This document shows, one piece after another, positions 2,326 to 24,608 of a stretch of 64,000 nucleotides of DNA; positions within the stretch are counted from its first letter, which is position 1; each line of letters begins with the position of its first letter. Source of the DNA: Stenotrophomonas sp. SAU14A_NAIMI4_8 (GTDB taxonomy: Bacteria; Pseudomonadota; Gammaproteobacteria; Xanthomonadales; Xanthomonadaceae); the NCBI RefSeq assembly GCF_003086695.1, contig NZ_CP025999.1, forward strand, positions 2,583,680 to 2,647,679, written 5' to 3'. A program made the position numbers and the translations under genes. The notes below the pieces were generated by a model that worked only from the letters and a program-made list of their open reading frames with translations, searched no databases and had not been told where the DNA came from.

Positions 2326-2979
2326 ATGCGCGGCCGCACATTTCCCTGCGTTGTTCTGTCGCTGCTGATCGCCTGCAGCCCGGAGGCTCTCATGTCACAG
2401 GAGTTTGATTCCGCCGCCGCCAACGTCGCCCAGGGAGGGCGCGGCCTGGCAAAGCTCAACCCCGCCCCCCGCAAGGCCTATGAACTGGTCCTGCGGTTGG
2501 CCAACCCACCCGGCGATTTCGCGGTGGTCGAAGGCGTGGCCCAGTACGATGTCACCAACGAAGACCAGTGCGGCTACATCGAGCCGGAAACCGGCACCCC
2601 CGCGCGCATCACCAGCCAGGAGCCGGTGACCCTGCGCAAGGTGGCCGACAACGAGTATCGCGGCACGGTGTACCTGGACCGCATGCTGGACGAGGACTAC
2701 TACGGCCGCGGCGTCTGCACCTGGTCGTTCAGCGGTGCCGGCGCCATGCTCAAGGCCACCGGCGCCGACGGCGAAACCCGTTTCCTGTCCTTCCTAGGCG
2801 CCGATCCGTTCATGGGCGGGCGCACCGAAACCCGCCACTACCCGCGCGGCGACTACCCACGCGTGGATGACATGCCCGACTACGGCGCCAGCGGCCAGCA
2901 GGACCCCAACCGCTTCCGCGCCGAGCTGCGCGACGCCCTGTTCTCGGCCACCCTGAGCGCGCACGAGGTCAGCCCATGA
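2326..2979 (+). CDS. Putative immunity lipoprotein (X-Tfi) for lipase effector
   Basis: 217-residue lipoprotein: hydrophobic signal with lipobox L-I-A-C (VVLSLLIACS), so the mature protein would be lipid-anchored on the periplasmic side. The rest is polar, with two further Cys (QCGYIEP, GVCTWSF) that may form a disulfide. Its stop overlaps the start of the XVIPCD lipase by four bases (ATGA). In Xanthomonadaceae T4SSs such lipoproteins encoded beside effectors neutralise toxin returning to the periplasm (established for the family); the assignment here rests on context plus lipobox, not on sequence recognition. Confidence 0.75.
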   Translation: MRGRTFPCVVLSLLIACSPEALMSQEFDSAAANVAQGGRGLAKLNPAPRKAYELVLRLANPPGDFAVVEGVAQYDVTNEDQCGYIEPETGTPARITSQEPVTLRKVADNEYRGTVYLDRMLDEDYYGRGVCTWSFSGAGAMLKATGADGETRFLSFLGADPFMGGRTETRHYPRGDYPRVDDMPDYGASGQQDPNRFRAELRDALFSATLSAHEVSP

Positions 2980-4286
2980 CCGTGACCAGCCAGGACTACG
3001 CCGCGCTGGCCAGCGATGCCTACCGCGACGAACGGGTCGGCCGCCACGATCCAGCGCAGGAGCAGCCGGTCATCCTCAATGGCCACGCCTACCGCGTGCT
3101 GGAACACGCCAACAACCGCCTCAACGGCTACCAGGGCACCATCTATCAGCGCGTGGATACCCACGAGATCGTGGTCGCCCACCGTGGCACCGAACAGATC
3201 GGCCGCGACGGCATCCTGACCGACGGTGGCATGGTGCTGGCCCGGCGCAACCTGCAGGCCAACGACGCACTGGAACTGACCCGCCACGCCCTGGCCTATG
3301 CGCAGAAGGAAGGCCGCGACCTGGGCCAGACCCCGGAAGTAAGCGTGACCGGGCATTCGCTGGGCGGCACGCTGGCGCAGATTTCGGCCCATCACTTCGA
3401 TCTGAAGGGCGAAACCTTCAACGCCTACGGCGCGGTCAGCCTGACCTACCGCATTCCCGAAGGCGGCCACAACGTGCTCAACCACGTGATGGCGGCCGAC
3501 CCGGTCAGTGCGGCCTCGCAGCACTTCGGTGACGTGCGCATGTACGCCACGCAGAAGGAGATCGACACGCTGGGCAGCTGGGGCTTCAGCAACAGCCGCT
3601 TCCGCGCGCTCATTCCCGACAGTGCGCTGGGCGCGGCCGCCTCATCGCTGGGCTCGCACAAGCTCAGTAACTTCCTCGGCGACGATTCGGTCTTGAACAC
3701 CGCGGGCACGCAGGAGCTTGCCCGCGACAACAGCCGGATGATCGGCGAGTACCGCAACGAAGTGGAGCGCGTGCGCCGTGGCATCACCATTGGTGCGCGT
3801 GGCATCACCGGCAATCTGTACGACATCTACGACCACAGCCGCGGCCCGCTGCAGCCGGGCGAACCGGCACGGCGGGAAGGCCCGGTGGCGCCGTTGCCGG
3901 GTATCACCGAACGTGACCATGCCGGCAATCCACTGTTCAACGATGCCCTGCGCGGCGTTCACGCCCTGGACGCACGTGCCGGGCGCACGCCCGATGCGAT
4001 GAGTATGCAGCTGGCAGGTTCACTGGCAGCGGAAATGCACGCCGCCGGCGGCCAGCGCATCGACGAGGTGGTGATGAGCGGCGATGCCGCGCGCAGCTTT
4101 GCGGTGCAGGGCCAGAGTGGTGATCCCGGCCATCTGCGGGTATCGGTGGATACCGCAGTGGCCACCCACACGCCGCTGGAACAGAGCACCCAGCGCATCG
4201 AGCAGCAGACCGCGCAGCGCCAGAGCCAGGAACGCGACCCGCAGCAGGAGCTGCTGCAGAGCCAGGCACGCGCCCTGCCCTCCTGA
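2976..4286 (+). CDS. XVIPCD lipase effector of the T4SS (X-Tfe)
   Basis: 436 residues in two parts. The N-terminal alpha/beta-hydrolase domain has the class-3 lipase nucleophile elbow G-H-S-L-G-G (Ser about 128, in VTGHSLGGTLAQISAHHF) and the upstream IVVAHRGTE strand typical of lipases. The C-terminus from about residue 313 is an XVIPCD, the VirD4-docking secretion domain: NPLFNDALRGVHALD, then GQRIDEVVMS, SFAVQGQSGDP, and a Gln-rich tail. The predicted role is phospholipid attack in the periplasm of recipient cells after transfer through the T4SS. The start overlaps the immunity lipoprotein gene (ATGA), so the two are co-translated. No signal peptide, as expected for a T4SS substrate. Confidence 0.88.
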   Translation: MTVTSQDYAALASDAYRDERVGRHDPAQEQPVILNGHAYRVLEHANNRLNGYQGTIYQRVDTHEIVVAHRGTEQIGRDGILTDGGMVLARRNLQANDALELTRHALAYAQKEGRDLGQTPEVSVTGHSLGGTLAQISAHHFDLKGETFNAYGAVSLTYRIPEGGHNVLNHVMAADPVSAASQHFGDVRMYATQKEIDTLGSWGFSNSRFRALIPDSALGAAASSLGSHKLSNFLGDDSVLNTAGTQELARDNSRMIGEYRNEVERVRRGITIGARGITGNLYDIYDHSRGPLQPGEPARREGPVAPLPGITERDHAGNPLFNDALRGVHALDARAGRTPDAMSMQLAGSLAAEMHAAGGQRIDEVVMSGDAARSFAVQGQSGDPGHLRVSVDTAVATHTPLEQSTQRIEQQTAQRQSQERDPQQELLQSQARALPS

Positions 4287-5770: not shown

Positions 5771-6778
5771 TTACAGCGTTCGCGAGCGCTGCTGTTCCTG
5801 CTCGCGGTTGATCGAAGCCGACTGTTCCTGCCGTGCAGTGGCATCGGCCGCCAGTTGCCGGCTGCTTTCTTCCAGCGGTTGCTGGGTGGCCTGCACGCGT
5901 TCCACCGCACAGCGCTGCATGGCCGGGTCGCCCATGTTGCCCTGCACTGCAAACAGCATGCGCCCGTCCGCGCCAGCGACCACGTGGTCAATCTGTTGCA
6001 GCCCGGCCTTGTGCGCGCCTGCCGCCAGCGCGGCGGCCGCGTTGTCCAGTTCCTGCGGCGTGCGCAGGCCACTGCCCGGCCCAAGCTGCTGCAACCCGTT
6101 GCGCGCGCCCAGGAACAGGCCATGGCCGACGTGGCTGGGATCGGTCATATCGCGCGCCACCGCGGCGCGTTCGCCCACCTCGCCACGCCCCAGGCGCTCC
6201 ATCACGTCGGGGGTCAGCTTCTGCTGCCAGCCATCGAAGCGCCGCAGCCGATCCTCCACCCCGTTCATCGCACCATTGATGGCATAGGTTGCCTCGCGCA
6301 CATCCTCGCGCGCCTGCTCCGGTACGTGCTGCTGCCACTGCCAGACCGCGATGCGACCAGCGTGTTCGGGCTGCGCGGCCAGCTCGGGGTGGTTCAACAG
6401 ATCCAGATCCAGCGCCTGGCCGGCGCGCGCGTAAGCGTCCTTTCCGGTCAGCGGCAGATAGCCGCGCCCGTGGTAGGTCAGCGCATCGCCTGGCGCATCG
6501 TTGCCCAGCCGGCCGCCGTACATCAGCTCGGCCAGCGCCTCCGGGCGCCCACGCAGGGCCTCCTGGCGCGCCGACTCCAGCGCGTCGTTGCCGTTGCGCC
6601 ACGCCGCTTCCACCGGAATCTGCGAGATGCCCCGGGTGTAGTTGAAGCTCTCGTTCAGACGCGACAGGCCGCGCGACTCGTGCCCCGCCTGGGCCATGAA
6701 ATTGGCCAGCTCGCGTGGCGAATCGATGCCTGCCGCAGTCGCCTGCCGCAGCAGTTGCGACTCCCTATCCCTCGACAC
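5771..6778 (-). CDS. XVIPCD effector with GH19 peptidoglycan hydrolase domain (X-Tfe)
   Basis: 335 residues. Residues 1 to about 185 form a GH19 lysozyme/chitinase-type domain: FMAQAGHESRGLSRLNESFN carries the first catalytic Glu (HES), and GDALTYHGRGYLPLTGKDAY matches the family's GRG-x-x-Q/L-TG core. From about 205 there is an XVIPCD: DPSHVGHGLFLGARNG, LQQIDHVVAGADGRMLFAVQ and a Gln-rich tail ending EQEQQRSRTL. No signal peptide. The expected role is cleavage of rival peptidoglycan after T4SS delivery. The likely immunity gene lies immediately upstream on the same strand. Confidence 0.9.
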   Translation of the reverse strand: MSRDRESQLLRQATAAGIDSPRELANFMAQAGHESRGLSRLNESFNYTRGISQIPVEAAWRNGNDALESARQEALRGRPEALAELMYGGRLGNDAPGDALTYHGRGYLPLTGKDAYARAGQALDLDLLNHPELAAQPEHAGRIAVWQWQQHVPEQAREDVREATYAINGAMNGVEDRLRRFDGWQQKLTPDVMERLGRGEVGERAAVARDMTDPSHVGHGLFLGARNGLQQLGPGSGLRTPQELDNAAAALAAGAHKAGLQQIDHVVAGADGRMLFAVQGNMGDPAMQRCAVERVQATQQPLEESSRQLAADATARQEQSASINREQEQQRSRTL

Positions 6779-8926: not shown

Positions 8927-9472
8927 TCAGAACGCCTCGAAGATCGGCTTCGTGCAATTCGCATAGACCTCTTCACACGGCCCCGGGCCGTCGTTCCTGC
9001 ACTGCGTCTGGGCGGCCCGTCGAGCGAGTTCGGGGTTTGGACCTCCGCCCACACCTCCCCTGCCCCTACCAGTGCGACCTTTGGGAACGAGCCAGGACAC
9101 ACACTGATTGTAGTAACTCATGGTGACCGTGCAGTCTTTGGCACCCGCGGTTGCACACCGCGAAACGGCCAACGCCTCAGCCTCGCCCTTCGTTCGTTTC
9201 CCATCGGAAACGCCTGCGTCATCTGACGTCGCTGATTCTGCGATGGATCCCCACGTCTTTATCCAATGCCCGGTTGGAGAGTTGGCGGGGACTTCGGTCT
9301 GGCCACTAGTGCCCGACGTTCCACTTGGAATAGGCGCACAGCCCTGCACGCCTTGCCCGCCAATGGGGTAGTAGCCTGGAGGGCAGCTTCCGCCTTCTGC
9401 CGACGCGGTGCCGACGCTTCCGATGAGGAGCAGGATCAAACCCGCAACCACTGCCTTTATCCACATCAACAC
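8927..9472 (-). CDS. DUF4189-type exported protein, copy A
   Basis: 181 residues: signal peptide (LILLLIGSVGTASAEG), an N-terminal CPPGYYPIGG-x-GVQGCAPIP motif, a Ser/Gly/Thr linker, then the DUF4189 core beginning HWIKTWGSIAESATSDDAG with Cys pairs in SRCATAGAKDC, NQCVSWLVPK and CRNDGPGPCEEVYANC. Ends TKPIFEAF. It is the most downstream of six related units. Start is GTG 9472 or ATG 9466; GAGG lies 5 nt before the GTG. Function of the family is unknown; export and disulfides suggest a periplasmic or surface role linked to the T4SS. Confidence 0.82.
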   Translation of the reverse strand: MLMWIKAVVAGLILLLIGSVGTASAEGGSCPPGYYPIGGQGVQGCAPIPSGTSGTSGQTEVPANSPTGHWIKTWGSIAESATSDDAGVSDGKRTKGEAEALAVSRCATAGAKDCTVTMSYYNQCVSWLVPKGRTGRGRGGVGGGPNPELARRAAQTQCRNDGPGPCEEVYANCTKPIFEAF

Positions 9473-9690
9473 AATTACCTCGCACAGTTGGCACTGACAA
9501 AATGCTGTACCTGCATCCTCAATTCGGTTGCACTATCTACCAGAACACCAAGCGCTATGACCGAAGACGTCTTGGTCCGACCCGAGATGCCGGACCCACG
9601 TCTTACCAGGTTCCCAGCTCCGTCCAGCTAGTTTCCACGCACCCACCGCCCCCGTCAGGCTCGAAAAGTGGCAGACCAATTACGACAGTA

Positions 9691-10233
9691 TCAGAACTCT
9701 TCGAAGATCGGCTTCGTACAGTTCGCGTAGATCTGCTCACAGGGACCCGGACCGTCGTTCTTGCAGTGCGCCTGCGCTGAAAATCGAGCAAGCTCCGGAC
9801 TCGGCCCGCTCGCAATCGCTGCCTCCCCCCGGCCAGTGCGACCCTTGGGAATTAGCCACGATACGCATTGATTGAAGTAACTCATGGTGATCTTGCAGAC
9901 GCCGCCACCGCCAGTGGTGCACTTCGACAACGCTACCTTCTCCGCTTCATCCTTTGTTCGCTTGCCATCGGAAACACCAACATCATCTGAGGTAGTGGAC
10001 GAAGCAATGGATCCCCAAGTCTTTATCCAATGCCCGGTCGGAGAATTTGCCGGAACTTCGGACTGGCCGCCACTTCCTGAAGAACCACCCGGAATTGGCG
10101 CACAACCCTGCGCTCCTTGCCCGCCAATCGGATAATAGCCTTGAGGACAGCTTCCACCTTCTGCAGATGCAGTGCTGGCGCTCCCAAGGAAGAGCGATAC
10201 CACAACCGCCAGCACCACCGATATCTGCTTCAT
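9691..10233 (-). CDS. DUF4189-type exported protein, copy B
   Basis: 180 residues, close relative of copies A and C (signal peptide VVVSLFLGSASTASAEGG, CPQGYYPIGGQGAQGCAPIP, HWIKTWGSIASSTTSDDVG, C-terminus CTKPIFEEF). The start at 10233 (MKQISVV) is favoured because GAGG lies 8 nt upstream; the ATG at 10239 has only 2 nt spacing. The Cys pattern of copy A is kept except for local changes (KCTTGGGGVC). Confidence 0.85.
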   Translation of the reverse strand: MKQISVVLAVVVSLFLGSASTASAEGGSCPQGYYPIGGQGAQGCAPIPGGSSGSGGQSEVPANSPTGHWIKTWGSIASSTTSDDVGVSDGKRTKDEAEKVALSKCTTGGGGVCKITMSYFNQCVSWLIPKGRTGRGEAAIASGPSPELARFSAQAHCKNDGPGPCEQIYANCTKPIFEEF

Positions 10234-10630
10234 CACCATCACCTCACGACGTCTGCACGGGAGAAAGGCGTTGCTGCGCTCCTGTCGACCGAGCGGCAAT
10301 CGTAGTTGTCATGCGCGCTGCCGTGGCGACATGGGACAACAAAGCACACACACGCTCGCGATACACCTTTACAAGGCACTCCAGGATCAGGCAAATCAAC
10401 GTGCAGCCTCTTGGTCTGATTTGCGATACCGGTCCTGCCCCGAACAGAACAGCTGTATCCAGAGGGTAGCCCAGAAGCTCCAGCGTGATCCAATGCCAAT
10501 GAAGGACCTACGGTCAACCAGCTACTCGCTCGCCCAAAGCGGGTTCATCAGCACTGAGCGTGCATCGAGTGGATATCAATCCGTCTTCGGCCAACTCAAG
10601 CGCGAAATGCTTATGCTTATCAAGGCGACA
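10234..10630. other. Spacer between DUF4189 copies B and C
   Basis: About 400 bases with no recognisable gene, lower in GC than the core operon. Open frames here on the + strand are antisense extensions of the flanking genes. It probably holds decayed sequence from duplication of the array. Confidence 0.4.
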
Positions 10631-11173
10631 TCAAAACTCTTCAAAAATTGGCTTCGTGCAGTTCGCGTAAATCTCCTCACAGGGACCCGGGCCGTCGTTC
10701 TTGCAGTGCGCCTGCGCTGAGAATCGAGCATCTTCTGGCGTCGGCCCCCCACCTATCCCCGAAGCGCCCTGCCCGCTGCGCCAACGAGGAATCAACCAAG
10801 AGACGCACTGATTGTAGTAGCTCATGGTGATCTTACAGTTCTTGGCACCTGCACTCGCACACCGCGCAATAGCAGCCGCCTCGGCCTCAGCCTTCGTCCG
10901 CTTACCATCGGACACGCCAGCATCATCTGAAGTAGTGGACTCAGATATGGATCCCCACGTCTTTATCCATCGACCAGTCGGTGAATTGGCTGGGACCTCA
11001 GACTGAGACACCCCACCCGAGGCCCCGCCAGGAATAGGAGCGCAACCCTGAACCCCCTGCCCACCGATAGGGTAGTAGCCAGGAGGACAGCTTCCGCCCT
11101 CTGCAGACGCAGTGCCGACGCTTCCAAGGAACATTGAGCCAATACACGTCACCACGGCCAACATCCACTTCAT
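10631..11173 (-). CDS. DUF4189-type exported protein, copy C
   Basis: 180 residues from ATG 11173 (AAGG 8 nt upstream). Signal peptide ends GSVGTASAEGG; motifs CPPGYYPIGGQGVQGCAPIP, RWIKTWGSISESTTSDDAG, NQCVSWLIPRWRSG, CKNDGPGPCEEIYANCTKPI. The pseudogene fragment at 11460-11774 is nearest to this copy (shared GSISESTTSDDAGVSDGKRT). Directly upstream lies a fragment of virB6, reproducing the arrangement virB6 end then DUF4189 gene seen at 13.3 kb. Confidence 0.85.
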   Translation of the reverse strand: MKWMLAVVTCIGSMFLGSVGTASAEGGSCPPGYYPIGGQGVQGCAPIPGGASGGVSQSEVPANSPTGRWIKTWGSISESTTSDDAGVSDGKRTKAEAEAAAIARCASAGAKNCKITMSYYNQCVSWLIPRWRSGQGASGIGGGPTPEDARFSAQAHCKNDGPGPCEEIYANCTKPIFEEF

Positions 11174-11211
11174 CTCAATCACCTTGGGGATTTTCAATCA
11201 GCAAGCCGAAG

Positions 11212-11459
11212 TCATGCGGTGTTAGTGTTTGCGTTTCCACGCATGCCCGACTGCCCCTGCTGCAAATCAGTACCTGCGTGAATTCGAGGAGCTAAGCCCT
11301 CACCACCAAAACTTGGTCGAGCACCACTATTGGCCGGCGCTTCAGGCCTATAACCCTGCCCACCGCTGGAGCCCGGAGGCTGACCGTTCGGGCCTTGCGA
11401 TACAGGCACCGGGCTGCCGCCTATCTGGGAATATGCCATGAAGCTGCCCAGCGTGCCCT
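11212..11459 (-). pseudogene. Fragment: virB6 3' end (duplicate)
   Basis: Encodes QGTLGSFMAYSQIGGSPVPV and then GPNGQPPGS, matching the C-terminal part of the intact virB6 at 13291-14454 (QGTLGSFMAYSQIGGSAVPA, GPNGQPPGS). After that the tails differ: here GQGYRPEAPANSG to GNANTNTA, in the intact gene a Ser/Gly-rich end. At about 11459 the virB6 sequence joins the truncated end of a DUF4189 pseudogene at CCCTGGAA/ATCGG. It is a duplication scar carrying a different virB6 tail. Confidence 0.8.
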
Positions 11460-11976
11460 GGAAATCGGCGTGGTGCAATTCGCGTAGATCTGCTCACAGG
11501 GACCCGGACCGTCGTTCTTTCAGTGCGCCTGCGCTGAAAATCGACCATCTTCTGGCGTCGCCCCCCGCCCTGTTCCCTAAGCGCCCTGCCCACTGCGCCC
11601 ACGAGGAATCACCCAAGAGACGCACTGAATGTAGTAGCTCATGGTGATCTTACGGTTCTTGGCACCTACGCTCGCACACCGCGCAGCAGCCGCCGCCTCG
11701 GCCTGAGCCTTCGTTCGCTTACCATCAGACACACCAGCATCATCTGAAGTAGTGGATTCCGATATGGATCCCAACGTTTTTATCCAATGCCCGGTCGGAG
11801 AGTTGGCGGGACTTCAGTCTGGCCGCTACTACCCGAAGATCCACCTGGAAAGGCGCACAACCCCGTACGCCCTCTCCTCCTGTGGGATACATGCCGGATG
11901 GACAGTCACCCTCAGCCTGAACTGGATTCATGCCGTACATGCTCAGGCAGATCAGGGCGGCGGACACGCGCAACAC
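11460..11976 (-). pseudogene. DUF4189 pseudogene (copy D)
   Basis: Pieces of the family lie in different frames: signal peptide and CPSGMYPTGGEGVRGCAPF (11976 leftward), then MGSISESTTSDDAGVSDGKR to YYIQCVSWVIPRGRSGQGA ending at a stop near 11577, then remnants of the CKNDGPGPCEQIYANCT segment in yet another frame. The last codons are replaced by the virB6 fragment. At least two frameshifts and one stop make it non-functional. An 11-base C run (G on the coding strand) at 11980-11990 lies just before the GTG start. Confidence 0.8.
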
Positions 11977-12027
11977 GCGCCCCCCCCCCCTTCACGGCTG
12001 TGGTGCCGGAACGAGCCGAACATGCAG

Positions 12028-12579
12028 TCAGTAAGCGCGGAACTCCGCGAAACTGCATGCGGAGTAGGCAATCTCACAAACCTGTCCATTCCTCAATCGC
12101 GAACAACTGGAAACCGCGTTGGCACGGGCCTTCGCTTCAGACGGCGCGCGCGCGATTACCGCCTGACCCACCGGCGAGCCTCCCTTCACGTTCATCGGGT
12201 CCGCAATTGCGACACACTGATTGTAATAGGTCATTCGCACAGCACACTCCTTGCCCCCCAACCGAACGCACTCTGCCAAAGCCATGCGTTTGGCCTCTGC
12301 TTCGGACCCGCGGGACCGTACGACACCTGTCACCAGCGTCGCGCCGAGGCGATCAGCGCTGTCATCCGCGATGGCCCCCCAGCGATCTTCCCACACGCCA
12401 GGGGTTGCGCGAGGCTGGCTCTGCGCCTGCGGCACTGCTCGGCCGGGGATCGGTGCGCAGCCTTGGACACCCTACCCCCCGATGGGATAGAACCCAGCCG
12501 GGCAATTGCCCTCGGCAAGAGCCACTGAGGACAACGTCATGAGGGCCACCAACAGATTCAAACTGAAACGCGTTCCCAC
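12028..12579 (-). pseudogene. DUF4189-type gene interrupted by one amber codon (copy E)
   Basis: One continuous frame apart from a TAG at 12472-12474. Upstream part: GTG start, TRFSLNLLVALMTLSSVALAEG signal, NCPAGFYPIGG; then TAG where the relatives have CAG (Gln in GGQGV), then GVQGCAPIPG and the intact DUF4189 core VWEDRWGAIADDSADRLGA to ACSFAEFRAY. A single C-to-T change explains the break. The core is divergent from copies A-C (Cys pattern ECVRLGGKEC, NQCVAIADP). It could be translated from internal starts only without a signal peptide. Confidence 0.75.
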
Positions 12580-12742
12580 ATGCCCTCCGGAATCGATCCT
12601 ACCGACATCACCTCGCACGTTTGTTCGCGCCCCGCGGAGTTGATCAAGTACAAATTCCGCCATGGGAACACGAAACTGAGCTAACCGCCGGCATTACTAA
12701 TGTCACGCGCACCAGCCTGCCCCCGAACGAGCGGGACCACCA

Positions 12743-13282
12743 TCAATAGCGCTTGAAGAAAGGCTCACTACAAGCCGAATAAATCGATCTGCATTGAGAT
12801 CCTCCTTTGTTTCGGCAGTTCTGCAGGGCAGACTGAGTCGCTTCCTTTACGGTCGCAGCGCTGACGTAGTTTGTTCCAGTTGAAGCCAGTTCTGAAACAA
12901 CTGCCGCCACGCACTGATTCTGATAGACGAACTCAACCTTGCATGGACCGCCAGCCCTCTTCTCACAGTTCTCAATCGCCCTGCTCCGCGCTGTGCGTTC
13001 GCTGAACGCACCGACTGCAGCGCCGCCCTCCTTTCCCTCAATTGCACCGGCCAGAGCTCCCCACGTCTTGACCCATTCTCCTGTCAGTCGCTCGGACGCC
13101 GGCGCGGAAGGAGACGCACTCGTCCCTGAAGGCTGCTGTGCACCAGGGATCGGCGCACAGCCTCTCACGCCCTGTCCGCCAATGGGATACATCCCCGGAG
13201 GGCATCCGCCTTCCGCCCGCACCACTGGAGCGGCAAAGAACCCAAACATTACCAGTGCAAAACAGATCAAACGATGTGACAT
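12743..13282 (-). CDS. DUF4189-type exported protein, copy F
   Basis: 179 residues from ATG 13282 (GAGG 6 nt upstream). Signal peptide ALVMFGFFAAPVVRAEGG, CPPGMYPIGGQGVRGCAPIP, Ser/Pro-rich linker, core GEWVKTWGALAGAIEGKEGG with NCEKRAGGPC, NQCVAAVVSE, CRNKGGSQCRSIYSAC. The end is EPFFKRY. It lies just 8 bases after the virB6 stop, so it is probably the ancestral position of the array. Divergent from A-C, which resemble one another closely. Confidence 0.85.
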   Translation of the reverse strand: MSHRLICFALVMFGFFAAPVVRAEGGCPPGMYPIGGQGVRGCAPIPGAQQPSGTSASPSAPASERLTGEWVKTWGALAGAIEGKEGGAAVGAFSERTARSRAIENCEKRAGGPCKVEFVYQNQCVAAVVSELASTGTNYVSAATVKEATQSALQNCRNKGGSQCRSIYSACSEPFFKRY

Positions 13283-13290
13283 AGCAGACC

Positions 13291-14454
13291 TCACCCCCTA
13301 TCGTTGTTAGCGACACCTCGCTGCCCCGTGCCAGTAGTTGAGTCACTACCGAAACCGGAACGCTGCCCGCTGGAATCGTTCATTCTCTGCCCGGTATCGT
13401 GCGCAATGGGAGTGGGCGCGATTGCAGTCCCGCCGCTACCTGACCCATGCGAACCCGGCGGCTGCCCATTCGGGCCCGGCGATGCAGGTACGGCACTCCC
13501 GCCTATCTGCGAATATGCCATGAAGCTACCCAGGGTGCCCTGGAAGAACATCGCCGCCATTGGGGGCGCAGTCAGGATCAGCGTCGTGAGAATAAGCCCC
13601 ATGCCGCCCTGCTGCAGCGCCATGCTGGACATGCCCTCGGTGAAATTCTCGCCCATCAGGGCACCGGCTAGCGTGCTCCCCCAAAACGCGAAGGCAACCT
13701 TGGCAACCATCTTCATTGCAATGGCCGTCATTGCGGCAAGTACCGCCATTGAGAACATCGTGCCTATGCCATACAGCAACCATTTCTGGAACAGCTGCTT
13801 GGTCTGTTCAAATAGCAGGCACAAGATGAACAGCGGACCGAGGCCAATGAAGAGGGCCAGCGCTACTTCGTAGAGCAGCAACATCGAGCCTGCAGTCACG
13901 GCAGGACCACCGGTACCCATGCCGATAAACCACATGGTCCGCGTTTTCGCATTGTCCAGAGTGACATCACCCACGACGTCCAGCGTATCCACAGACGCCA
14001 GTGCAAGCTGCATGTAGCCAAGGTTCCGGTCAATGAGGTCTTCCGGCGATTCGTCCTCACCCGTAATCACATGAGTGATTTCGTTCTTTACGTCCTTGTT
14101 GAGGAAGCTGTGAAGATTGCTACCAAACATGGCCATCGTCGTGGCGACCGATACGATAAGCGCTGCCTTGGCCATGTTGGTTACAAGCACCATCATGGAA
14201 TCCCGGCTCTGGCCGGTGGCTATGCGATAGCCCTGAATGAGAACCCACAGAGTCATCAATGTCAGCGCCATGGCGCCGACCCACTTCATCACGCGTCCCA
14301 GCAGATCAACGCCAAACTCAGCGATCTCCTTATGCAGGTAGTCGAGGATCAGCCTGAAGAACATGAAGTCGCCAATGGACGACGTCACGTGAAGGTTCTG
14401 CAACATATCCAGTGCATTCAAGCCAAATGCACCACCGACCATCCCTAGACTCAT
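13291..14454 (-). CDS. virB6: T4SS inner-membrane channel protein VirB6
   Basis: 387-residue polytopic inner-membrane protein. Several hydrophobic segments are visible (WVGAMALTLMTLWVLIQGY, AALIVSVATTMAMFG, LLLYEVALALFIGLGPLFILCLLF, GMGLILTTLILTAPPMAAMFF), followed by a Gly/Ser/Pro-rich cytoplasmic or periplasmic tail. LFIGLGPLFILCLLFEQTKQLF is the family's conserved core. Last structural gene in the virB7-virB6 series. Its tail is duplicated at 11212-11459. Confidence 0.93.
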   Translation of the reverse strand: MSLGMVGGAFGLNALDMLQNLHVTSSIGDFMFFRLILDYLHKEIAEFGVDLLGRVMKWVGAMALTLMTLWVLIQGYRIATGQSRDSMMVLVTNMAKAALIVSVATTMAMFGSNLHSFLNKDVKNEITHVITGEDESPEDLIDRNLGYMQLALASVDTLDVVGDVTLDNAKTRTMWFIGMGTGGPAVTAGSMLLLYEVALALFIGLGPLFILCLLFEQTKQLFQKWLLYGIGTMFSMAVLAAMTAIAMKMVAKVAFAFWGSTLAGALMGENFTEGMSSMALQQGGMGLILTTLILTAPPMAAMFFQGTLGSFMAYSQIGGSAVPASPGPNGQPPGSHGSGSGGTAIAPTPIAHDTGQRMNDSSGQRSGFGSDSTTGTGQRGVANNDRG

Positions 14455-14501: not shown

Positions 14502-15350
14502 TTAGAGGGACAACGCCGCCTTGAGTGCAGCGGTCTTGACGACGGTTCCCAACGGCGATCGTGTCCCCTTGAGCGCGCGCTCAGTCAGGAACTCCTGTTG
14601 GCGCTCCAGGGCCGAGATCTGCCGGTCATACATCTTGATGCGCGTTTCCCATGCGGTGAAGTCCGCCTGCATGTACGAGTCGGACAGTTGGGCATTGGTC
14701 ATGGTTTCCGTCATTCCGCCTTCCTTGGACGTCAGCTCGCGAATGCTCTTGATCTTGTCAAGGACGCCGCGAATCTCCGGAAGCGTATCCTGGACGACAC
14801 TGATGGTTTCGTTGTATTTCTTGTTCTGGATGAGCTGGATCGCCGCGCAGATCTCCTTCTGCTGCTGTGCGATATCACCCTTGGGATTGAGCTTCATCGC
14901 CGAAAGCAGATCACCGATCCCACCGATCACGCCCAAGCCACAGCGTTCGGAAACATTCCAGTCATCCGGAACAGGCGTCAACGTGATGCCCGAGGGCATG
15001 TTCGGAGCGGCGATGATCTGCTGGAACTGGGCCAGCTTCTGCAGCCAGTTCTGCGTTGTGTCATAGAAGCGCTTGTACTGCTCGCCGTACTCGATAAAGG
15101 CCTCAGCCTGACTGGTCAGGGTATTGACCTCGGTCATCGTGCCGTTGAACAGCTGCATGCCGATCTCGACTACCGGAAGCGTGTAGGCCTGGACAGGCGC
15201 CACCAGCATCGCCGTCAGGCTTGCACCCATCAGCGAGGTACGGATGCGGGAGGACAGGGACTTCTTCTTGAGAGCGCGAGGTGCGGTTTCCATGTTCTTC
15301 TCCATCGTAATCAAGGGGCTTGCTGCGTTCACGTCCGTTGCGACAGTCAT
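14502..15350 (-). CDS. virB5: T4SS minor pilus protein VirB5
   Basis: 282 residues as drawn; the first ATG overlaps the virB4 stop (ATGA), but an internal ATG at 15293 with GGAG 6 nt upstream begins a better signal peptide (METAPRALKKK... to VAPVQAYT). The mature protein is largely helical with YGEQYKRFYDTTQNWLQKLA and ALERQQEFLTERALKG, as in VirB5/TraC. It is secreted to the periplasm and is placed at the pilus tip in model systems. The gene order virB4-virB5-virB6 supports the call. Confidence 0.88.
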   Translation of the reverse strand: MTVATDVNAASPLITMEKNMETAPRALKKKSLSSRIRTSLMGASLTAMLVAPVQAYTLPVVEIGMQLFNGTMTEVNTLTSQAEAFIEYGEQYKRFYDTTQNWLQKLAQFQQIIAAPNMPSGITLTPVPDDWNVSERCGLGVIGGIGDLLSAMKLNPKGDIAQQQKEICAAIQLIQNKKYNETISVVQDTLPEIRGVLDKIKSIRELTSKEGGMTETMTNAQLSDSYMQADFTAWETRIKMYDRQISALERQQEFLTERALKGTRSPLGTVVKTAALKAALSL

Positions 15351-17794
15351 GCTGCAACCTCCTTATTGTTGGATGCGGGCTTTCCAGAGCCCTTCCGGTT
15401 CTTGTAGAAATCTTCCAGCCACTGCTCCGGCGTCAGCTCATCGACCGTTACGCGGGCACGCACGGCAGCGCTCTGCAGCACACGGTGCATGACGTCGATG
15501 TTGTCGGTGGATGCAGAGATCACCGACAGGATGTCGTCCATGCCGCGCAGGTTGAGCTGGCACACGCTGGAAGCGTGGCCCTGCTTGACCAGGAAACAGC
15601 GTGAGCGCTCATCCAGCGCGGTGACGACACGGAACTCGGCCTCGGTCAGCTTCAGGCCGTCCATGTAGTCGCTCTTGCTGGCGTTCGGGTTCGGCAGCAG
15701 GATCAGCGTGGCGGTCTGTTCGATCAGGGCAGCGGAGATGTCGCTCTTCAGCGCGTCTTCCGGGCTCTGCGTGGCGAAGATGCCCAGCCCATTCTGCTTA
15801 CGGATGGTCTTCTGCTTGTTCTTGGCGAACTCCTTCAGGCCACCCTCGCCGTCCAGGATCTTCCAGAATTCGTCCATCACGTAGATCAGCGGACGACCGT
15901 CGATCAGCGATTCCAGTCGGTGCAGCAGGTAGTTGATGACCGGCACGCGCACTTCGGGGTTGTCGATGATGTCGGTGTAGTCAAAGCCAATGATGTTGGC
16001 CTTGCTCAGGTCCACGGTATCAACGGGGTTGTCGAACACCCAGCCCAGCGAGTTGCCCGAGGTCCAGCGGCGCATGCGCGCGTACAGACCGTCGTCGCCC
16101 ATGTTGGGCAGGCTCTTCTGGAAGTTGGTCATGCTGCGCAGGTGCATGGGCGTGTCCAGCATGCTTTCCACCGCGCGGTAGATGTCTTCCTCTTCGCGGG
16201 CGCTGTATTCGCGCTTGCCGGCCAGCACCTTGATCAGGTCGGCCAGGAACTGCACGTTGGCTTCGCTGTTTTCGCACTGGAACGGATTGAAGCCGGTCGG
16301 CGCGCCGTTCTCCAGGGCCAGGTAGTTGCCGCCACAGGCACGCACGAAGATCTCTGCGCCGCGGTCCTTGTCGAAGAAGAAGATCGTCGGCGACGGGTCG
16401 TACTTCTGCACCTGGCTGAGCAGGAAATTGATCAGCGCGGTCTTACCGGTACCGGACTTACCGATCACCATGGTGTTGGCGATGGCCTTTTCACCCAGCG
16501 AATTCTCGGAGGGATGGGTGGCGTGGAAGTTGAAGTAGTACGGCTGGCCGTTGGTGGTCTGCAGCGTGGTGACGCAGTCGCCCCACGGGTTGTTGTGCTG
16601 CTTGCCGGTGGCGAAGTTGTGCAACGGCGACAGGCCCAGGAAGTTCAGCGAGCTGACGTTGGCCAGCCGCGTGCGATAGCGCCAGTTGCCCGGCAGCTGC
16701 GAGTAGAACGACGAGGTGACGGCCAGGTCTTCCTTGGTCGATACGAACCCAGCGTTGGACAGCTCGGCGCGGGTGGTGGCCACGTTCTGCGAGAGCTTGG
16801 CCTGGCTGTCGCCGTAGACCGTCATCATGAAGTGGTACTCGCCCAGCACGAAATTGCCTGAGGAGAGCTGATCCATGGCCTGGTCCAGCTCCACGATCTG
16901 ACTGACCGCCTTGTCACCGGACGAGATCATCATGCCCTTGGTGCGGTCCAGCACCTTCAGAGCATCCTGGCGCCCCATCGGGCTGAAGGAGTGGGTGATG
17001 ACGTATTCGTAGTCCAGATACTTCAGACCGTTGAGGATGCCCGGGTAGGTTCCCTCGGCATACTCCTTGATGTTCAGGATGGCGCCGAAGTGATTGACGC
17101 CATTGGGCGTATTGATGACGAAGTCACCGGTCTTGGCCGAGAACATGTGCCGGCTGACCGGCAGGTAGTCCTTCACGGGAGCCGACAACACCGGCACCGG
17201 CTCATCAATGCGGTTGATGAGGTAACCAAACAGCTCCAGCGTTTCCGAGAACACCACGCCGTTCTTGGCCTCGTACATGCCCAAGCGGTAAGGCGCGTAG
17301 TCGCGGATCACCGCTTCAACGTTGCCCGCCAGTTCCAGCAGCTTCTCGACCGCCTGCTCCTGCTCGGCGCGCAGCTTTTCGATGTTGGCGGACTTTTCGA
17401 CGAAGCGCTTTCCGGCCACGACCGGCCTGAAGATCATGGTCAGATACAGTTCGTTCTGCATGATGCGCTGCGACGACAGCATGCCCATGTACTGATCGGA
17501 CACGTCCTGGTTGAACCGCTGCTTGTACTCGCTCTTGCCCTTCAGCGTGCGACGGCGACGGATGTCATGCACCCAGAAGGCGACGTTGACGAAATCCGGC
17601 GCGCGCAGGGTCTGCAGCAGCCGGTTGAAGGTGTTGTGCCGATGCTCGAGCTCCCATTCCTCACGGCCCACGAACGGCAAGCCTTCCAGATGCCAGGTCA
17701 TGAGATAGTCGCCGCCCGTGGTCTTCACCACGTTCGGTGCCACATGTGATGACAACGGAATGAATTCGCTGATGGAGGTGTCTGGACTGAACAT
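15347..17794 (-). CDS. virB4: T4SS ATPase VirB4
   Basis: 815-residue cytoplasmic AAA+ ATPase that powers assembly and substrate transfer. Walker A is GKSGTGKTALINFLL, Walker B LIYVMDEFWKIL, and the C-terminal Gln motif region IFATQSPEDALKS is present. The N-terminal CagE/VirB4 domain covers about the first 350 residues. Length is normal. It is separated from virB3 by 81 bases that include a stem-loop. Confidence 0.96.
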   Translation of the reverse strand: MFSPDTSISEFIPLSSHVAPNVVKTTGGDYLMTWHLEGLPFVGREEWELEHRHNTFNRLLQTLRAPDFVNVAFWVHDIRRRRTLKGKSEYKQRFNQDVSDQYMGMLSSQRIMQNELYLTMIFRPVVAGKRFVEKSANIEKLRAEQEQAVEKLLELAGNVEAVIRDYAPYRLGMYEAKNGVVFSETLELFGYLINRIDEPVPVLSAPVKDYLPVSRHMFSAKTGDFVINTPNGVNHFGAILNIKEYAEGTYPGILNGLKYLDYEYVITHSFSPMGRQDALKVLDRTKGMMISSGDKAVSQIVELDQAMDQLSSGNFVLGEYHFMMTVYGDSQAKLSQNVATTRAELSNAGFVSTKEDLAVTSSFYSQLPGNWRYRTRLANVSSLNFLGLSPLHNFATGKQHNNPWGDCVTTLQTTNGQPYYFNFHATHPSENSLGEKAIANTMVIGKSGTGKTALINFLLSQVQKYDPSPTIFFFDKDRGAEIFVRACGGNYLALENGAPTGFNPFQCENSEANVQFLADLIKVLAGKREYSAREEEDIYRAVESMLDTPMHLRSMTNFQKSLPNMGDDGLYARMRRWTSGNSLGWVFDNPVDTVDLSKANIIGFDYTDIIDNPEVRVPVINYLLHRLESLIDGRPLIYVMDEFWKILDGEGGLKEFAKNKQKTIRKQNGLGIFATQSPEDALKSDISAALIEQTATLILLPNPNASKSDYMDGLKLTEAEFRVVTALDERSRCFLVKQGHASSVCQLNLRGMDDILSVISASTDNIDVMHRVLQSAAVRARVTVDELTPEQWLEDFYKNRKGSGKPASNNKEVAA

Positions 17795-17836
17795 GCGACG
17801 GCTTCCAAAGGGGTACTGCAGAAGTGGTTTGAAGCT

Positions 17837-17866
17837 GCACCGGCCAGCCTGTCGGCCGGCCGGTGC
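17837..17866. repeat. Stem-loop between virB3 and virB4
   Basis: Perfect 9-base arms GCACCGGCC (17837-17845) and GGCCGGTGC (17858-17866) in the 81-base gap inside the operon. No T-run. It may stabilise or process the mRNA between virB3 and virB4. Confidence 0.55.
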
Positions 17867-17875
17867 ATGTGGCCC

Positions 17876-18184
17876 TCAATCCTTGGGGGCCGGCTTGGTG
17901 CGGTAGTGATTCGGGTTGAACACCCACATCCCATCGTGTTCCTGCACATTGCGGGCGCGCAGCTTGAACAGCAGCCGCAGGCCCAGCAGCCGGAAGATCA
18001 TCTCGTCACGCTTGGCCATCTGCCGCATGATGAAAATGGCCACCGGTATGGTGAGCAGGAACCAGAAATTGGTGTAGACGCTCAGCAACAGCAACCCGCC
18101 CGCCACCATGAAGAAAGGCAGGTAGGGCACGCCCAGAAACATGGCCGGGCGCGTGCAACCCCGAAACAGTACGTTCTTATGCAC
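17876..18184 (-). CDS. virB3: T4SS inner-membrane protein VirB3
   Basis: 102 residues with paired hydrophobic segments near the N-terminus (FLGVPYLPFFMVAGGLLLLSV, FWFLLTIPVAIFIM) and the basic tail typical of VirB3. The conserved opening LFRGCTRPAMFLGVP is diagnostic. It overlaps the end of virB2 by 8 bases, so translation is probably coupled. Confidence 0.93.
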   Translation of the reverse strand: MHKNVLFRGCTRPAMFLGVPYLPFFMVAGGLLLLSVYTNFWFLLTIPVAIFIMRQMAKRDEMIFRLLGLRLLFKLRARNVQEHDGMWVFNPNHYRTKPAPKD

Positions 18185-18587
18185 TGTAGTACTGGATGGC
18201 GTTCTGGATCAGGAAGGTGGTGCCGCCGCCCGAGTTGGAGCAGTTGCCATCGCTGCCGTCACCCAGCAGCATGCGCGCGATCTGGCTGGCAGCGCCGATC
18301 AGAACGCCACCGATCAGGATAGGCGCCACTTCAGAGATGCGCTTGTGAGCGAAGGCGATCTGGTAACCGGCAAAGATGACGGCGATGGTGACCACCGCGA
18401 TCGAGGCCATGTTCAGCAGGCCGTTGATGTTGTCGAAGAAGCCACAGACCTTGGTGTCGGTGCCGCCGTAGTCGGGACCGCCGGCGAACACCTGCGGCGC
18501 GAACACGGCGCCGACGAAAAGGGTGGCCATCAGCAGCGACTTCAGCGTGCGCTGCGCCTGGACGAGGTCAATATTGGATCGCTTCAT
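18177..18587 (-). CDS. virB2: T4SS major pilin VirB2
   Basis: 136 residues from ATG 18587, with AGGA 9 nt upstream. A long signal peptide ends VFAPQVFAGG; the mature pilin has two hydrophobic helices (MASIAVVTIAVIFAGYQIAF, VAPILIGGVLIGAASQIARML) joined by a short basic loop AHKRISE, the standard pilin layout, then a longer Gly/Ser-rich C-terminus (GDGSDGNCSNSGGGTTF) with a Cys that may pair with VCGFFDN. The longer open frame upstream is an artefact. Confidence 0.93.
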   Translation of the reverse strand: MKRSNIDLVQAQRTLKSLLMATLFVGAVFAPQVFAGGPDYGGTDTKVCGFFDNINGLLNMASIAVVTIAVIFAGYQIAFAHKRISEVAPILIGGVLIGAASQIARMLLGDGSDGNCSNSGGGTTFLIQNAIQYYSA

Positions 18588-18660
18588 GGATTGATTTCCT
18601 TGTTGATGGACTAACAGAACTGAATCGACCAGCCGGGGGACTGGCCGCACCACGACTTCG

Positions 18661-19629
18661 TCAGAACACGAAGGCCGCATCCCCTGCGGGAATCTGTTGC
18701 ACCGGCAGCTGCTGGGCCGGCGCGTTATAGACGTTTTCCTGGGCGGCGGTCGGCTGTTCGCGCTCGCCCCAGGGGCGCAGCATGACCGGCTGCTCGCCAG
18801 AGGCCGCCATTCCCGGCAGCTGTTGCGGCATTGCCTGCGGACCGGGGGCGCCGGCTGCCTGCGGCAGCTGCTGCGGATAAGCCTGCCCCTGCGCACCCTG
18901 TGCCGCAGCCTGTTGCGGCTGCATCATGCGGTCCACCGAGCCCAGCACCACGCGCGACAGCGCCTGATCGGCAAGGTTCAACGCACTGCTGCGCGCCATC
19001 GCGCCCGCCGACGGGTAGACCGTGTAGGCACGGGCCGGATCGTTGGACGGCACGTACACCGGCGCGTCGGCCTGGGCGACGATGCGCGACTGCACCGGCG
19101 ACAGGGTCTGCGGATGGTGTTCAACCTTCACCGTACGACGCTCGCCGCGGCTGACCACATCGATCGGCAGTGCGCCATTGCTGGCCACCTGCTGCCCACG
19201 GCGCATCGAATCGTAGATCTTCTGCACGTAGCCATGGCGGAAGCCGGTGGTGAAATTACCCGAGTAGTAGCAGCTGAACGACTTGCCCCAGTCCTGGCCG
19301 GAACGCTTGTAGCATTCGGCCAGGATGCGCGAGCCCGCCTGCAGGTTGGCGCACTGTTGGAAGGCTTTTTCGTACGAATCCAGGCCGTACTTGGCCAGGT
19401 TGTAGCGGTTCACCTGGGCCAGGCCGACCGAGAAGTTGTAACCCTTCTCTTCCAGCATGCGCACGGTGGCCAGCGCTTCATCCAGCGCCTTGGGCTGGCG
19501 CACCAGCGCGCCGCCCACCACGCCGATGGCGAAGGGGTTGCGCGAGGATTCCACGTTGATGACGTGCTGCATGACGTCCATGGACACGGCCATTTCCGGG
19601 CATGCCATCATTTCCAGGCCTGGCAACAT
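18661..19629 (-). CDS. virB1: T4SS lytic transglycosylase VirB1
   Basis: 322 residues. The N-terminal lysozyme-like domain has the catalytic Glu in HVINVESSRNPFAIGVV, with SVGLAQVNRYNLAKYGL and CYYSGNFTTGFRHGYVQKI as the usual motifs. The C-terminal half is a Gln/Pro/Ala-rich linker with no clear fold. It opens peptidoglycan for T4SS assembly. The start lies three bases after the virB11 stop. No classical signal peptide is seen at the drawn start, as is common for VirB1 in this group. Confidence 0.9.
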   Translation of the reverse strand: MLPGLEMMACPEMAVSMDVMQHVINVESSRNPFAIGVVGGALVRQPKALDEALATVRMLEEKGYNFSVGLAQVNRYNLAKYGLDSYEKAFQQCANLQAGSRILAECYKRSGQDWGKSFSCYYSGNFTTGFRHGYVQKIYDSMRRGQQVASNGALPIDVVSRGERRTVKVEHHPQTLSPVQSRIVAQADAPVYVPSNDPARAYTVYPSAGAMARSSALNLADQALSRVVLGSVDRMMQPQQAAAQGAQGQAYPQQLPQAAGAPGPQAMPQQLPGMAASGEQPVMLRPWGEREQPTAAQENVYNAPAQQLPVQQIPAGDAAFVF

Positions 19630-19632
19630 CGT

Positions 19633-20676
19633 TCAACCCTCCTGCCCCTGGGCGCGCCCAGGATTGAAATCAATGCCGGTGATGTAACGCGAACCGGCAT
19701 GCGCCTTGATATGCACCACGATGTCGATGGTCATCATCAGCAGACGCTTGATGACCTCGAATTCCAGGCCAGAGCCCTCCGTGGAGGCCTTCACCATCAG
19801 CGCCAGCTGGTCCCAGGTCTGCTCCGGGCTGCCGGCATGGCAGCTAGTGATGGAACCGGGGTGACCGGACGCGCAGTTACGGATGAAGTAGAACGCTTCA
19901 TCGCCACGCAGCTCGGCCAGGATGATGCGCTCGGGCTTCATGCGCAGGCAGGCTTCCATGCAGCTCTTGGCGGTGACGTTGCTGGCACTCTGGCCGCCCT
20001 TGGAGTACAGCAGGTGAACCACGTTGGGCTGGGTCAGGAACAGCTCGCGTGCGTCCTCGATGGTGACCAGGCGTTCGCTGTCTGGAATGTGGTTGACCAG
20101 TGCCTTCATGAAGGTGGTCTTGCCACTACCGGTGGCGCCGGACACCACGATGTTCTTGCGATACATCACCGCACGCCGGAAGAACTCGGCGTATTCGCGC
20201 GAATGCCGCAGCTCCAGCAGCTCGCGGTCCTGCTCGCTCAGGCTGCCGTCCTGCTCCAGGATCTGGTTGAAGAACCCGTCTTCGTGATACTGGGTGAGCG
20301 ACTTGGTGTGCTTGGACGGCAGACGGATGGTGATGGACACCTTGCCGGCATCGCACGCAGGCGGGATCACGAACTGCGCACGCTGCCCGGTGGGGAACGT
20401 GAGCGAGACCACCGGATCGGCATCGGTGATGCGCTGGCCGGTGTTGCTCTCGTTCACCACCGCGGTGCAGAACTGCCGGGCCCGCTCGAAGGTCAGGCCC
20501 GGCACGTCCACGCGCTGCCACCCTGCCCGGGTTTCCAGGTACAACTCGCCCGGACGGTTGATGCAGATTTCCGTCACGTCGGGCGAGCTCATGTACTCCG
20601 CGATGCCCAGCACTTCGTACTGATAGCGCAGGAATTCGCTGGAAACAAGGGCGATGGGAGACACTTCGGCGTCCAT
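19633..20676 (-). CDS. virB11: T4SS ATPase VirB11
   Basis: 347-residue hexameric traffic ATPase. Walker A is SGATGSGKTTFMKALVNH, the Asp box is VTIEDARELFL, and the Walker B/His-box region is RIILAELRGDEAFYFI and NCASGHPGSITSCHAGSPEQ. Located at the cytoplasmic face; in X. citri it works with VirB4 and VirD4. Separated from virB10 by 14 bases. Confidence 0.96.
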   Translation of the reverse strand: MDAEVSPIALVSSEFLRYQYEVLGIAEYMSSPDVTEICINRPGELYLETRAGWQRVDVPGLTFERARQFCTAVVNESNTGQRITDADPVVSLTFPTGQRAQFVIPPACDAGKVSITIRLPSKHTKSLTQYHEDGFFNQILEQDGSLSEQDRELLELRHSREYAEFFRRAVMYRKNIVVSGATGSGKTTFMKALVNHIPDSERLVTIEDARELFLTQPNVVHLLYSKGGQSASNVTAKSCMEACLRMKPERIILAELRGDEAFYFIRNCASGHPGSITSCHAGSPEQTWDQLALMVKASTEGSGLEFEVIKRLLMMTIDIVVHIKAHAGSRYITGIDFNPGRAQGQEG

Positions 20677-20690
20677 GATCGTTCTATGAA

Positions 20691-22741: not shown

Positions 22742-22790
22742 CGGTTGCTTGCTCCATCAGCATTTCCGGTGGAATGGTTCGTTACACGTT

Positions 22791-23870: not shown

Positions 23871-23958
23871 GGATTCTTCCGTACTGCTGAAACATCAATG
23901 GGCGTGACGCCCCTGCGGCGGGCGCGGGGTGCGGCACGTTCGATGATTTCGGTGGGGC

Positions 23959-24405: not shown

Positions 24406-24608
24406 ACGGGCTTCACTTTGACGTACGAAAAAGCAGTCCCGATGTTGGTCCCCTGGTCGTCCGGCGCTGCATGGCGCACGCCAGAAACGTCACAGTAAGC
24501 GCACTTAACAGGGCACAACTGTCACGGTTCCCCTGCAGCCCGAAAGCTGCCAACCAGGTCGCATACCACGGCCTTTCCAAGCCGCGCTCATGCGCCCTCA
24601 CCAACGTC

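What the first reader, a model, noticed from the sequence alone, without database searches (positions are those of the whole stretch)
8927..13282. Expanding and decaying array of six DUF4189 secreted proteins after virB6
Six related exported proteins follow virB6: F and E divergent, A, B and C very similar, D broken. The intact ones keep CPxGYYPIGG and Cys pairs. Expansion of one exported family just behind a contact-killing machine suggests selection for diversity, as seen in immunity or decoy proteins. The family's role is unknown, so this may be an unrecognised component of the system.
Basis: partly seen in the sequence, partly recalled or inferred. Interest (0 to 1): 0.75.

Follow-up and report, generated by a model that had tools for sequence, protein, structure and literature searches.

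The report
VirB6-tail partner genes with displaced copies
Next to a bacterial killing machine lies a row of small exported proteins, each matched to a highly variable tail of one machine part, which looks like a lock-and-key system that could let sister cells spare each other.

Summary
The six DUF4189 copies are real; four are intact (A, B, C, F), D and also E are broken. In related genomes the repeating unit is [virB6 3' end + DUF4189]. VirB6 ends in a hypervariable tail of about 50 residues, and tail and adjacent DUF4189 travel as a matched pair: for 52 of 53 units with a tail match of 60% or more, the best tail match is also (within 3 points) the best DUF match. Displaced DUF4189 genes are mostly intact (98 of 133) with low dN/dS, while their virB6 pieces decay or are absent. 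Strong DUF4189 hits occur in 53 of 55 T4SS-positive and 1 of 36 T4SS-negative Stenotrophomonas genomes. Three Luteimonas VirB6 without a tail also lack the gene. Best explanation (inferred): VirB6-directed exclusion, as in conjugative plasmids, sparing kin from T4SS killing; displaced genes kept as extra specificities. It would fill a published gap: wild-type X. citri does not kill sisters lacking effector-immunity proteins (PMC10933484). Binding and protection are untested; the topology of the VirB6 tail is an open difficulty.

The parts
13291..14454 (-). virB6 of the antibacterial T4SS (387 aa)
   Evidence: Pfam TrbL/VirB6 E 1.1e-28; between virB5 and the array
13294..13452 (-). codons of the hypervariable VirB6 tail (about residues 335-387), after the conserved hinge MAAMFFQGTLGSFMAYSQIGG...PPG
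   Evidence: column identity about 0.95 before the hinge end and 0.31-0.36 in the tail over 70 homologs; comparison of 45 active units
12743..13294 (-). DUF4189 copy F, intact, the copy directly behind the working virB6; start codon overlaps or touches the virB6 stop
   Evidence: PF13827 E 1.8e-17; closest relatives are active copies of L038/L102 (56%)
12028..12663 (-). DUF4189 copy E, interrupted by an in-frame stop (12472-12474)
   Evidence: PF13827 E 7e-16 for 12028-12435; frames
11480..11976 (-). DUF4189 copy D, broken by frame changes and stops; its end is fused to the virB6 fossil
   Evidence: PF13827 E 1.6e-6 for 11577-11774; one TGA and one TAG inside; junction
11212..11478 (-). fossil of the virB6 3' end: hinge plus another tail allele, no N-terminal part
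   Evidence: 58% to VirB6 301-384, E 6e-13; 63% to the VirB6 tail region of L006
10631..11197 (-). DUF4189 copy C, intact, directly behind the virB6 fossil (the displaced pair)
   Evidence: PF13827 E 1.9e-16; structure model pLDDT 84
9691..10299 (-). DUF4189 copy B, intact, no virB6 remnant directly upstream
   Evidence: PF13827 E 1.2e-16
8927..9472 (-). DUF4189 copy A, intact, no virB6 remnant directly upstream
   Evidence: PF13827 E 2.4e-16
14502..26525 (-). rest of the T4SS cluster upstream: virB5, virB4, virB2, virB1, virB11-virB7, virD4 (named by order and by reading the frames, not scanned one by one)
5771..6778 (-). T4SS effector, GH19 domain plus XVIPCD secretion domain
   Evidence: PF20410 E 2e-27 and PF00182 E 1.3e-7
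2976..4286 (+). T4SS effector, lipase domain plus XVIPCD secretion domain
   Evidence: PF20410 E 5.5e-26 and PF01764 E 1.5e-4

Best explanation
The array is a set of cognate partners of the VirB6 tail, and most likely a machine-directed exclusion (kin-protection) system. Shown by sequence: the working virB6 carries a hypervariable C-terminal tail; the gene directly behind it encodes an exported-looking DUF4189 protein; tail and DUF4189 are exchanged between strains and species as one matched module; older modules are pushed downstream, where the virB6 piece is a 5'-truncated fossil but the DUF4189 gene mostly stays intact. Inferred: DUF4189 sits in the periplasm of a potential target and recognises the tail of the attacker's VirB6, the central channel subunit, stopping delivery if the tail is of the cell's own type, as Eex/TraS proteins of conjugative elements do with their VirB6 homolog TraG. 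Displaced DUF4189 copies would keep protection against attackers that still use those tails, so the array would be a heritable set of accepted tail types. The steps 'binds the tail', 'acts in the recipient' and 'blocks killing' are not shown.
For: (1) Pairing: 162 distinct units (tail plus intact DUF) from 93 loci; for 52 of the 53 units whose best tail match is 60% or more, the same unit is (within 3 points) the best DUF match; r 0.49 against a maximum of 0.09 in 500 label permutations. In the first set of 78 units, partial r given the VirB6 body is 0.56. (2) Module exchange: of 30 pairs of active VirB6 with bodies at least 97% identical, 27 have tails under 65% (22 pairs with the contig-cut L056 dropped); the reverse, L031 displaced against L041 active, has bodies 63%, tails 100%, DUF 97%. 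(3) Retention: 45 of 45 first copies and 98 of 133 displaced copies intact; displaced DUF intact without an intact tail 73 times, intact tail with broken DUF 4 times; displaced-displaced pairs at 90% identity or more have median dN/dS 0.13. (4) 17 of 108 intact displaced copies are at least 85% identical to the working copy of another genome. (5) Co-loss: Luteimonas L110, L112 and L114 have VirB6 ending 28 residues after the hinge and no DUF4189. (6) A T4SS-negative genome (G057) keeps a DUF4189 gene beside a lysozyme-inhibitor (LprI) gene. (7) Precedent, passages read: exclusion genes of IncP, IncW and IncN plasmids abut a virB6 homolog, and TraS/Eex target the VirB6 homolog TraG (PMC11493245); SGI1 evades exclusion by replacing TraG (PMC5389848). 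(8) Open gap in print: wild-type X. citri does not kill sisters lacking immunity proteins, pointing to 'a still-to-be-characterized mechanism of protection' (PMC10933484; abstract and three sections read); the deletions named there do not include XAC2611, and published qPCR primers for XAC2611 and XAC2606 translate into the DUF4189 N-terminal motif.
Against: No binding, localisation or protection data. In A. tumefaciens and Brucella the VirB6 C-terminus is reported cytosolic (PMC6536674, passage), whereas DUF4189 looks exported, so a meeting needs exposure of the tail or a different topology; my VirB6 model is too poor to help (pLDDT 49). Export is read by eye from the N-terminus and conserved Cys; no signal-peptide predictor was run. 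Tail and DUF are neighbours, so part of the covariation is linkage. L030 (G085) has a tail but no DUF4189, and L120 has a short tail and no DUF. The second VirB6 type (L026, L032, L047, L054) has a tail and no DUF4189. One gene, L005:5324, joins the tail type of L004 to the DUF type of L006; it is a broken gene. Decay does not increase with distance in the array, so an ordered record is not supported. DUF4189 domains also occur far from T4SS genes in other families.
Confidence: 0.58

Rival explanations
1. Cis partner: DUF4189 is an assembly, gating or protective factor that must fit the VirB6 tail in the same cell. Displaced copies are by-products of module replacement or a reserve for later recombination.
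For: All 45 first copies are intact; start of the DUF4189 homology lies at a median of 4 bp from the virB6 stop; X. citri virB6, xac2611, xac2610 and xac2609 respond together in a 5' UTR mutant (PMC7286519, passage).
Against: Displaced copies whose VirB6 partner is gone are mostly intact with low dN/dS, and a T4SS-negative genome keeps one. As a reserve one would expect tails to be kept as well as DUFs.
Confidence: 0.22
2. Outside pressure: the tail or DUF4189 contacts target-cell or phage molecules, and phage or prey resistance drives the diversity; displaced copies serve as alternatives.
For: Hypervariable, horizontally exchanged alleles fit any arms race; VirB5 of these systems is also said to evolve fast (PMC6536674, passage).
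Against: Does not predict one matched partner per tail nor retention of DUF without tail. VirB6 is a membrane subunit, not known as surface exposed.
Confidence: 0.08
3. Hitch-hiking: the tail is an unconstrained linker and DUF4189 is merely the next gene; recombination moves both because they are neighbours.
For: Adjacent DNA shares history without any interaction; tails are predicted disordered.
Against: Tails keep a hinge and a terminal G-x-x-G-x-A-like motif; where the tail is absent in three Luteimonas the gene is absent too; DUF4189 tracks the T4SS; similar tails with unlike intact DUFs were not found except two pairs of the short-tailed L053/L036 type, where 50 residues include the hinge.
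Confidence: 0.07

Closest known systems
Entry exclusion of conjugative elements aimed at a VirB6 homolog (TraS-TraG of F, Eex-TraG of SXT/R391, EexC-TraG of IncC; eex/trbK genes beside virB6 homologs in IncN, IncP, IncW)
   Same: Gene next to a virB6 homolog, allele-specific pairing with it, envelope protein (passages of PMC11493245, PMC8923210, PMC12624023).
   Different: Here in a chromosomal protein-killing T4SS, with an exported Cys-rich protein of another family (PF13827), a short hypervariable tail as the varying part, and arrays of displaced modules. No exclusion activity shown.
Orphan modules of CDI/Rhs polymorphic toxins (recalled, no call)
   Same: Displaced 3' fragments of the big gene, each with its partner gene kept behind it.
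   Different: The fragment is the tail of a machine subunit, not a toxin domain; the partner outlives the fragment.
[quoted passage not shown]
   Same: Exported protective proteins coded beside the same machine.
   Different: Partner is VirB6, not an effector; X-Tfis protect the producing cell itself (PMC10933484).
Rv1813c of Mycobacterium tuberculosis (7nhz)
   Different: Other organism and setting; no VirB6 link is known to me. A shared fold shows no function.

Membership tests
DUF4189 (PF13827) | Match above Pfam's gathering score | tested here: met
   A, B, C, E, F and a piece of D above 25 bits
Antibacterial Xanthomonadales-like T4SS (X-T4SS) | Effectors with XVIPCD near a virB7-11/virB1-6 plus virD4 cluster | tested here: met
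   Two PF20410 effectors in the window; VirB6 TrbL hit; VirB10 relatives in the same 55 genomes as VirB6; other subunits by reading only
VirB6-directed entry exclusion | Gene adjacent to a virB6 homolog | tested here: met
   96 of 106 distinct full-length VirB6 genes with at least 500 bp of sequence behind them (20 of the loci had been picked with DUF hits known)
VirB6-directed entry exclusion | Allele-specific match with the VirB6 homolog | tested here: met
   Covariation, 52 of 53 units; binding itself not tested
VirB6-directed entry exclusion | Acts in the recipient to block delivery | not testable with these tools
   Needs a killing assay
VirB6-directed entry exclusion | Sequence match to a named exclusion family | tested here: not met
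   NCBIfam gives no family at E <= 0.1 for A, B, C and F; Pfam gives only DUF4189. So it is not filed as a member of a named exclusion family; the claim is that it works like one
Effector-immunity (X-Tfi) | Gene paired with an X-Tfe effector gene | tested here: not met
   In the window the copies lie behind virB6 or behind each other, with another exported ORF between A and the GH19 effector; partner by covariation is VirB6
Orphan modules as in CDI/Rhs | Displaced 3' fragments each followed by the partner gene | tested here: met
   Maps
Orphan modules as in CDI/Rhs | The displaced fragment is a toxin domain | tested here: not met
   It is a VirB6 hinge and a P/G/S-rich tail without a Pfam hit

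The most novel reading that the evidence does not exclude
An antibacterial T4SS carries a tag-and-shield system: the VirB6 tail is a polymorphic identity tag of the attacker, DUF4189 is the matching shield in the target, and bacteria collect foreign or former shields in an array. This would be general kin recognition at the level of the weapon rather than of each effector, and would explain why X. citri spares sisters without effector immunity.
Probability: 0.5. Interest if true: 0.92.

Novelty: new variant of a known kind. Interest (0 to 1): 0.85.

Why it matters
How cells with this T4SS avoid killing each other is stated to be unknown (PMC10933484, Discussion). The module gives a named candidate, XAC2611 and its VirB6 partner XAC2612, and a prediction that can be read from sequence: strains with the same VirB6 tail, or carrying the matching DUF4189, should spare each other. 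It would also extend VirB6-directed exclusion from conjugation to bacterial killing and give a function to part of a domain family of unknown function.

Tried and rejected

Absence in print rests on these searches of open-licence PMC papers (no preprints held): DUF4189 with type IV secretion, 0 papers; DUF4189, 3 papers, seen as a listing; XAC2611, 2 papers; fratricide and T4SS since 2023, 1 paper; kin discrimination and VirB6 terms since 2022, 2 papers.
Full report
What is there. Six DUF4189 copies lie behind virB6 on the minus strand. All six DUF4189 places of this genome are in this array. Between D and C is a fossil of the virB6 3' end, 11212-11478 (58% to VirB6 residues 301-384, E 6e-13), and the end of D runs directly into it. 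The cluster is an antibacterial T4SS: two effectors with the XVIPCD secretion domain lie in the window (PF20410).

The fossil is the rule, not an accident. I fetched 57 loci from Stenotrophomonas genomes, nearly all chosen by a virB6 match, and mapped VirB6 and DUF4189 on them. The usual order is full virB6, DUF4189, and then in many genomes repeats of [5'-truncated virB6 piece, DUF4189]. G046 (L010) has six VirB6 pieces besides the full gene. The same holds in loci of other genera: 20 loci picked because both families had hits, and 50 loci found by VirB6 alone and carrying organism names (Xanthomonas, Pseudoxanthomonas, Luteimonas, Lysobacter, Rhodanobacter, a Rhodoferax MAG). In one Xanthomonas-like genome (G380) four full virB6 genes stand in line, each followed by its own DUF4189; by eye, units also hold a virB4 piece, a virB5-like gene, a possible immunity gene and an effector-like gene with a repeated C-terminus. 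A paper already noted four virB6 copies in X. euvesicatoria (PMC10432156, passage).

VirB6 has a hypervariable tail. After the conserved hinge (MAAMFFQGTLG...PPG) follow about 50 residues that differ almost freely and end in a G-x-x-G-x-A-like motif. Of 30 pairs of active VirB6 with bodies at least 97% identical, 27 have tails under 65% identity; 22 further pairs were dropped because L056 is cut by a contig end. L004, L005 and L006 have bodies rounding to 100% but tails of 49-57% and DUF4189 of 59-64%.

Tail and DUF4189 are a matched pair. In Stenotrophomonas, 78 units with readable tails give 2954 pairs between loci: tails of 80% or more (16 pairs) go with DUF4189 of median 97% (64-100), tails under 50% with medians of 42-46%. 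The correlation is 0.585 (maximum of 2000 permutations 0.089) and 0.56 after removing VirB6-body similarity. Over 162 distinct units from 93 loci, 53 have a tail match of 60% or more, and for 52 of them the same unit is, within 3 points, the best DUF match. Discordant pairs: two with tails of 80% or more and DUF under 75%, both of the short-tailed L053/L036 type where 50 residues include the hinge; seven with DUF of 85% or more and tails under 60%, in which, by my reading, one tail is frame-shifted (L006, L028, L070 or L085). One real mismatch, L005:5324, joins the tail type of L004 to the DUF type of L006, and that gene is broken. Modules cross species borders: a displaced unit of L031 equals the active unit of L041 (tail 100%, DUF 97%) although the VirB6 bodies are 63% identical.

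The partner outlives the tail. In 45 loci (six loci with divergent types were left out) all 45 first copies and 98 of 133 displaced copies are intact. A displaced DUF is intact without an intact tail 73 times (61 of them without any virB6 remnant directly upstream, some of which may never have had one); the reverse, intact tail with broken DUF, occurs 4 times. Pairs of displaced copies at 90% identity or more have pooled pN/pS 0.17 and median dN/dS 0.13 (24 pairs, not independent; part of the divergence may predate displacement). 17 of 108 intact displaced copies are at least 85% identical to the working copy of another genome. Neither tail retention nor DUF intactness falls with position, so the array is not an ordered record.

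Presence and absence. Among 91 Stenotrophomonas genomes, 55 have VirB6 (E <= 1e-40) and VirB10 (E <= 1e-90), the same 55. Strong DUF4189 hits (E <= 1e-10) occur in 53 of these 55 and in 1 of the other 36; at E <= 1e-3 the counts are 54 and 11. The T4SS-negative genome with a strong hit, G057, carries it beside a lysozyme-inhibitor gene (LprI). In the family sample 213 of 395 genomes have a VirB6 match and 195 of 395 a DUF4189 match. Of 106 distinct full-length VirB6 genes with at least 500 bp of sequence behind them, 96 have DUF4189 directly behind (median 4 bp; two more VirB6 without a recognised hinge were left out of this count). The ten without: L090 (tail cut short), L110, L112 and L114 (Luteimonas, VirB6 ends 28 residues after the hinge), L120 (short tail), L030 (G085, full tail, a real exception), and L026, L032, L047 and L054, a second VirB6 type with other genes behind it. 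Three natural cases thus lack tail and DUF4189 together.

Mechanism. [quoted passage not shown] TraS and Eex act on TraG (PMC11493245, passages; PMC12624023, passages); SGI1 escapes exclusion by bringing its own TraG (PMC5389848, passages). The DUF4189 module has that position, an allele-specific link to VirB6, an exported-looking product, and retained copies without partner. Wild-type X. citri does not kill sisters that lack effector-immunity pairs, and the authors point to an uncharacterised protection (PMC10933484, abstract and sections 7, 12 and 15). X. citri xac2611 follows virB6 in the operon (PMC7286519, passage), and its published qPCR primers, like those of XAC2606, translate into the DUF4189 N-terminal motif; XAC2611 was the one tested neighbour gene not lowered in planta (PMC3953393, passage). 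S. maltophilia and X. citri do kill each other (PMC6759196, passage), as expected of different tail types. I therefore favour a VirB6-directed kin exclusion (0.58) over a cis partner (0.22), outside pressure (0.08) and hitch-hiking (0.07).

Weak points. Neighbouring genes covary by linkage; no interaction is shown. VirB6 C-termini are reported cytosolic in two model systems (PMC6536674, passage), the number of membrane helices in these VirB6 is called ambiguous there, and DUF4189 looks periplasmic; for SXT/R391 the matching regions of Eex and TraG are called cytoplasmic (PMC11493245), so a similar puzzle exists for known systems. DUF4189 domains exist outside T4SS loci.

Noticed in passing
L054 4328-6226 (own genome, G000:C1 near 2421161): A second virB5-virB6 pair away from the T4SS cluster, with a VirB6 tail ending in the same kind of motif but two other small exported-looking ORFs (114 and 175 aa, no Pfam hit) behind it instead of DUF4189; similar VirB6 in L026, L032 and L047. 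Possibly a spare specificity with another partner family.
   Followed up: partly
L059/L060 (G380) and L062: Repeated cassettes of virB5, virB6, DUF4189, possible immunity gene and effector-like gene, with transposases nearby; effector ends look alike, as if the locus gains cassettes by recombination.
   Followed up: partly
window 7722-8795 (-): A 357-aa exported-looking ORF without Pfam or NCBIfam match between the array and the GH19 effector region.
   Followed up: no
L055 6711-7800: T4SS-negative genome with DUF4189 next to an LprI lysozyme inhibitor, perhaps a small protective island.
   Followed up: partly
L025, L046, L049, opposite strand: Two-domain DUF4189-like proteins of about 370 aa with a 159-aa neighbour close to, but opposite to, the array.
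   Followed up: no
P0265, P0290-P0292, P0302, P0309, P0312, P0314: DUF4189 relatives (53-69% to a Xanthomonas copy) in Pseudomonas of the syringae group; whether beside a T4SS could not be seen.
   Followed up: no
L058 14285-16067 (Rhizobium plasmid pMK-2): Three tandem DUF4189 genes on a conjugative plasmid with no virB6 annotated within 15 kb.
   Followed up: no
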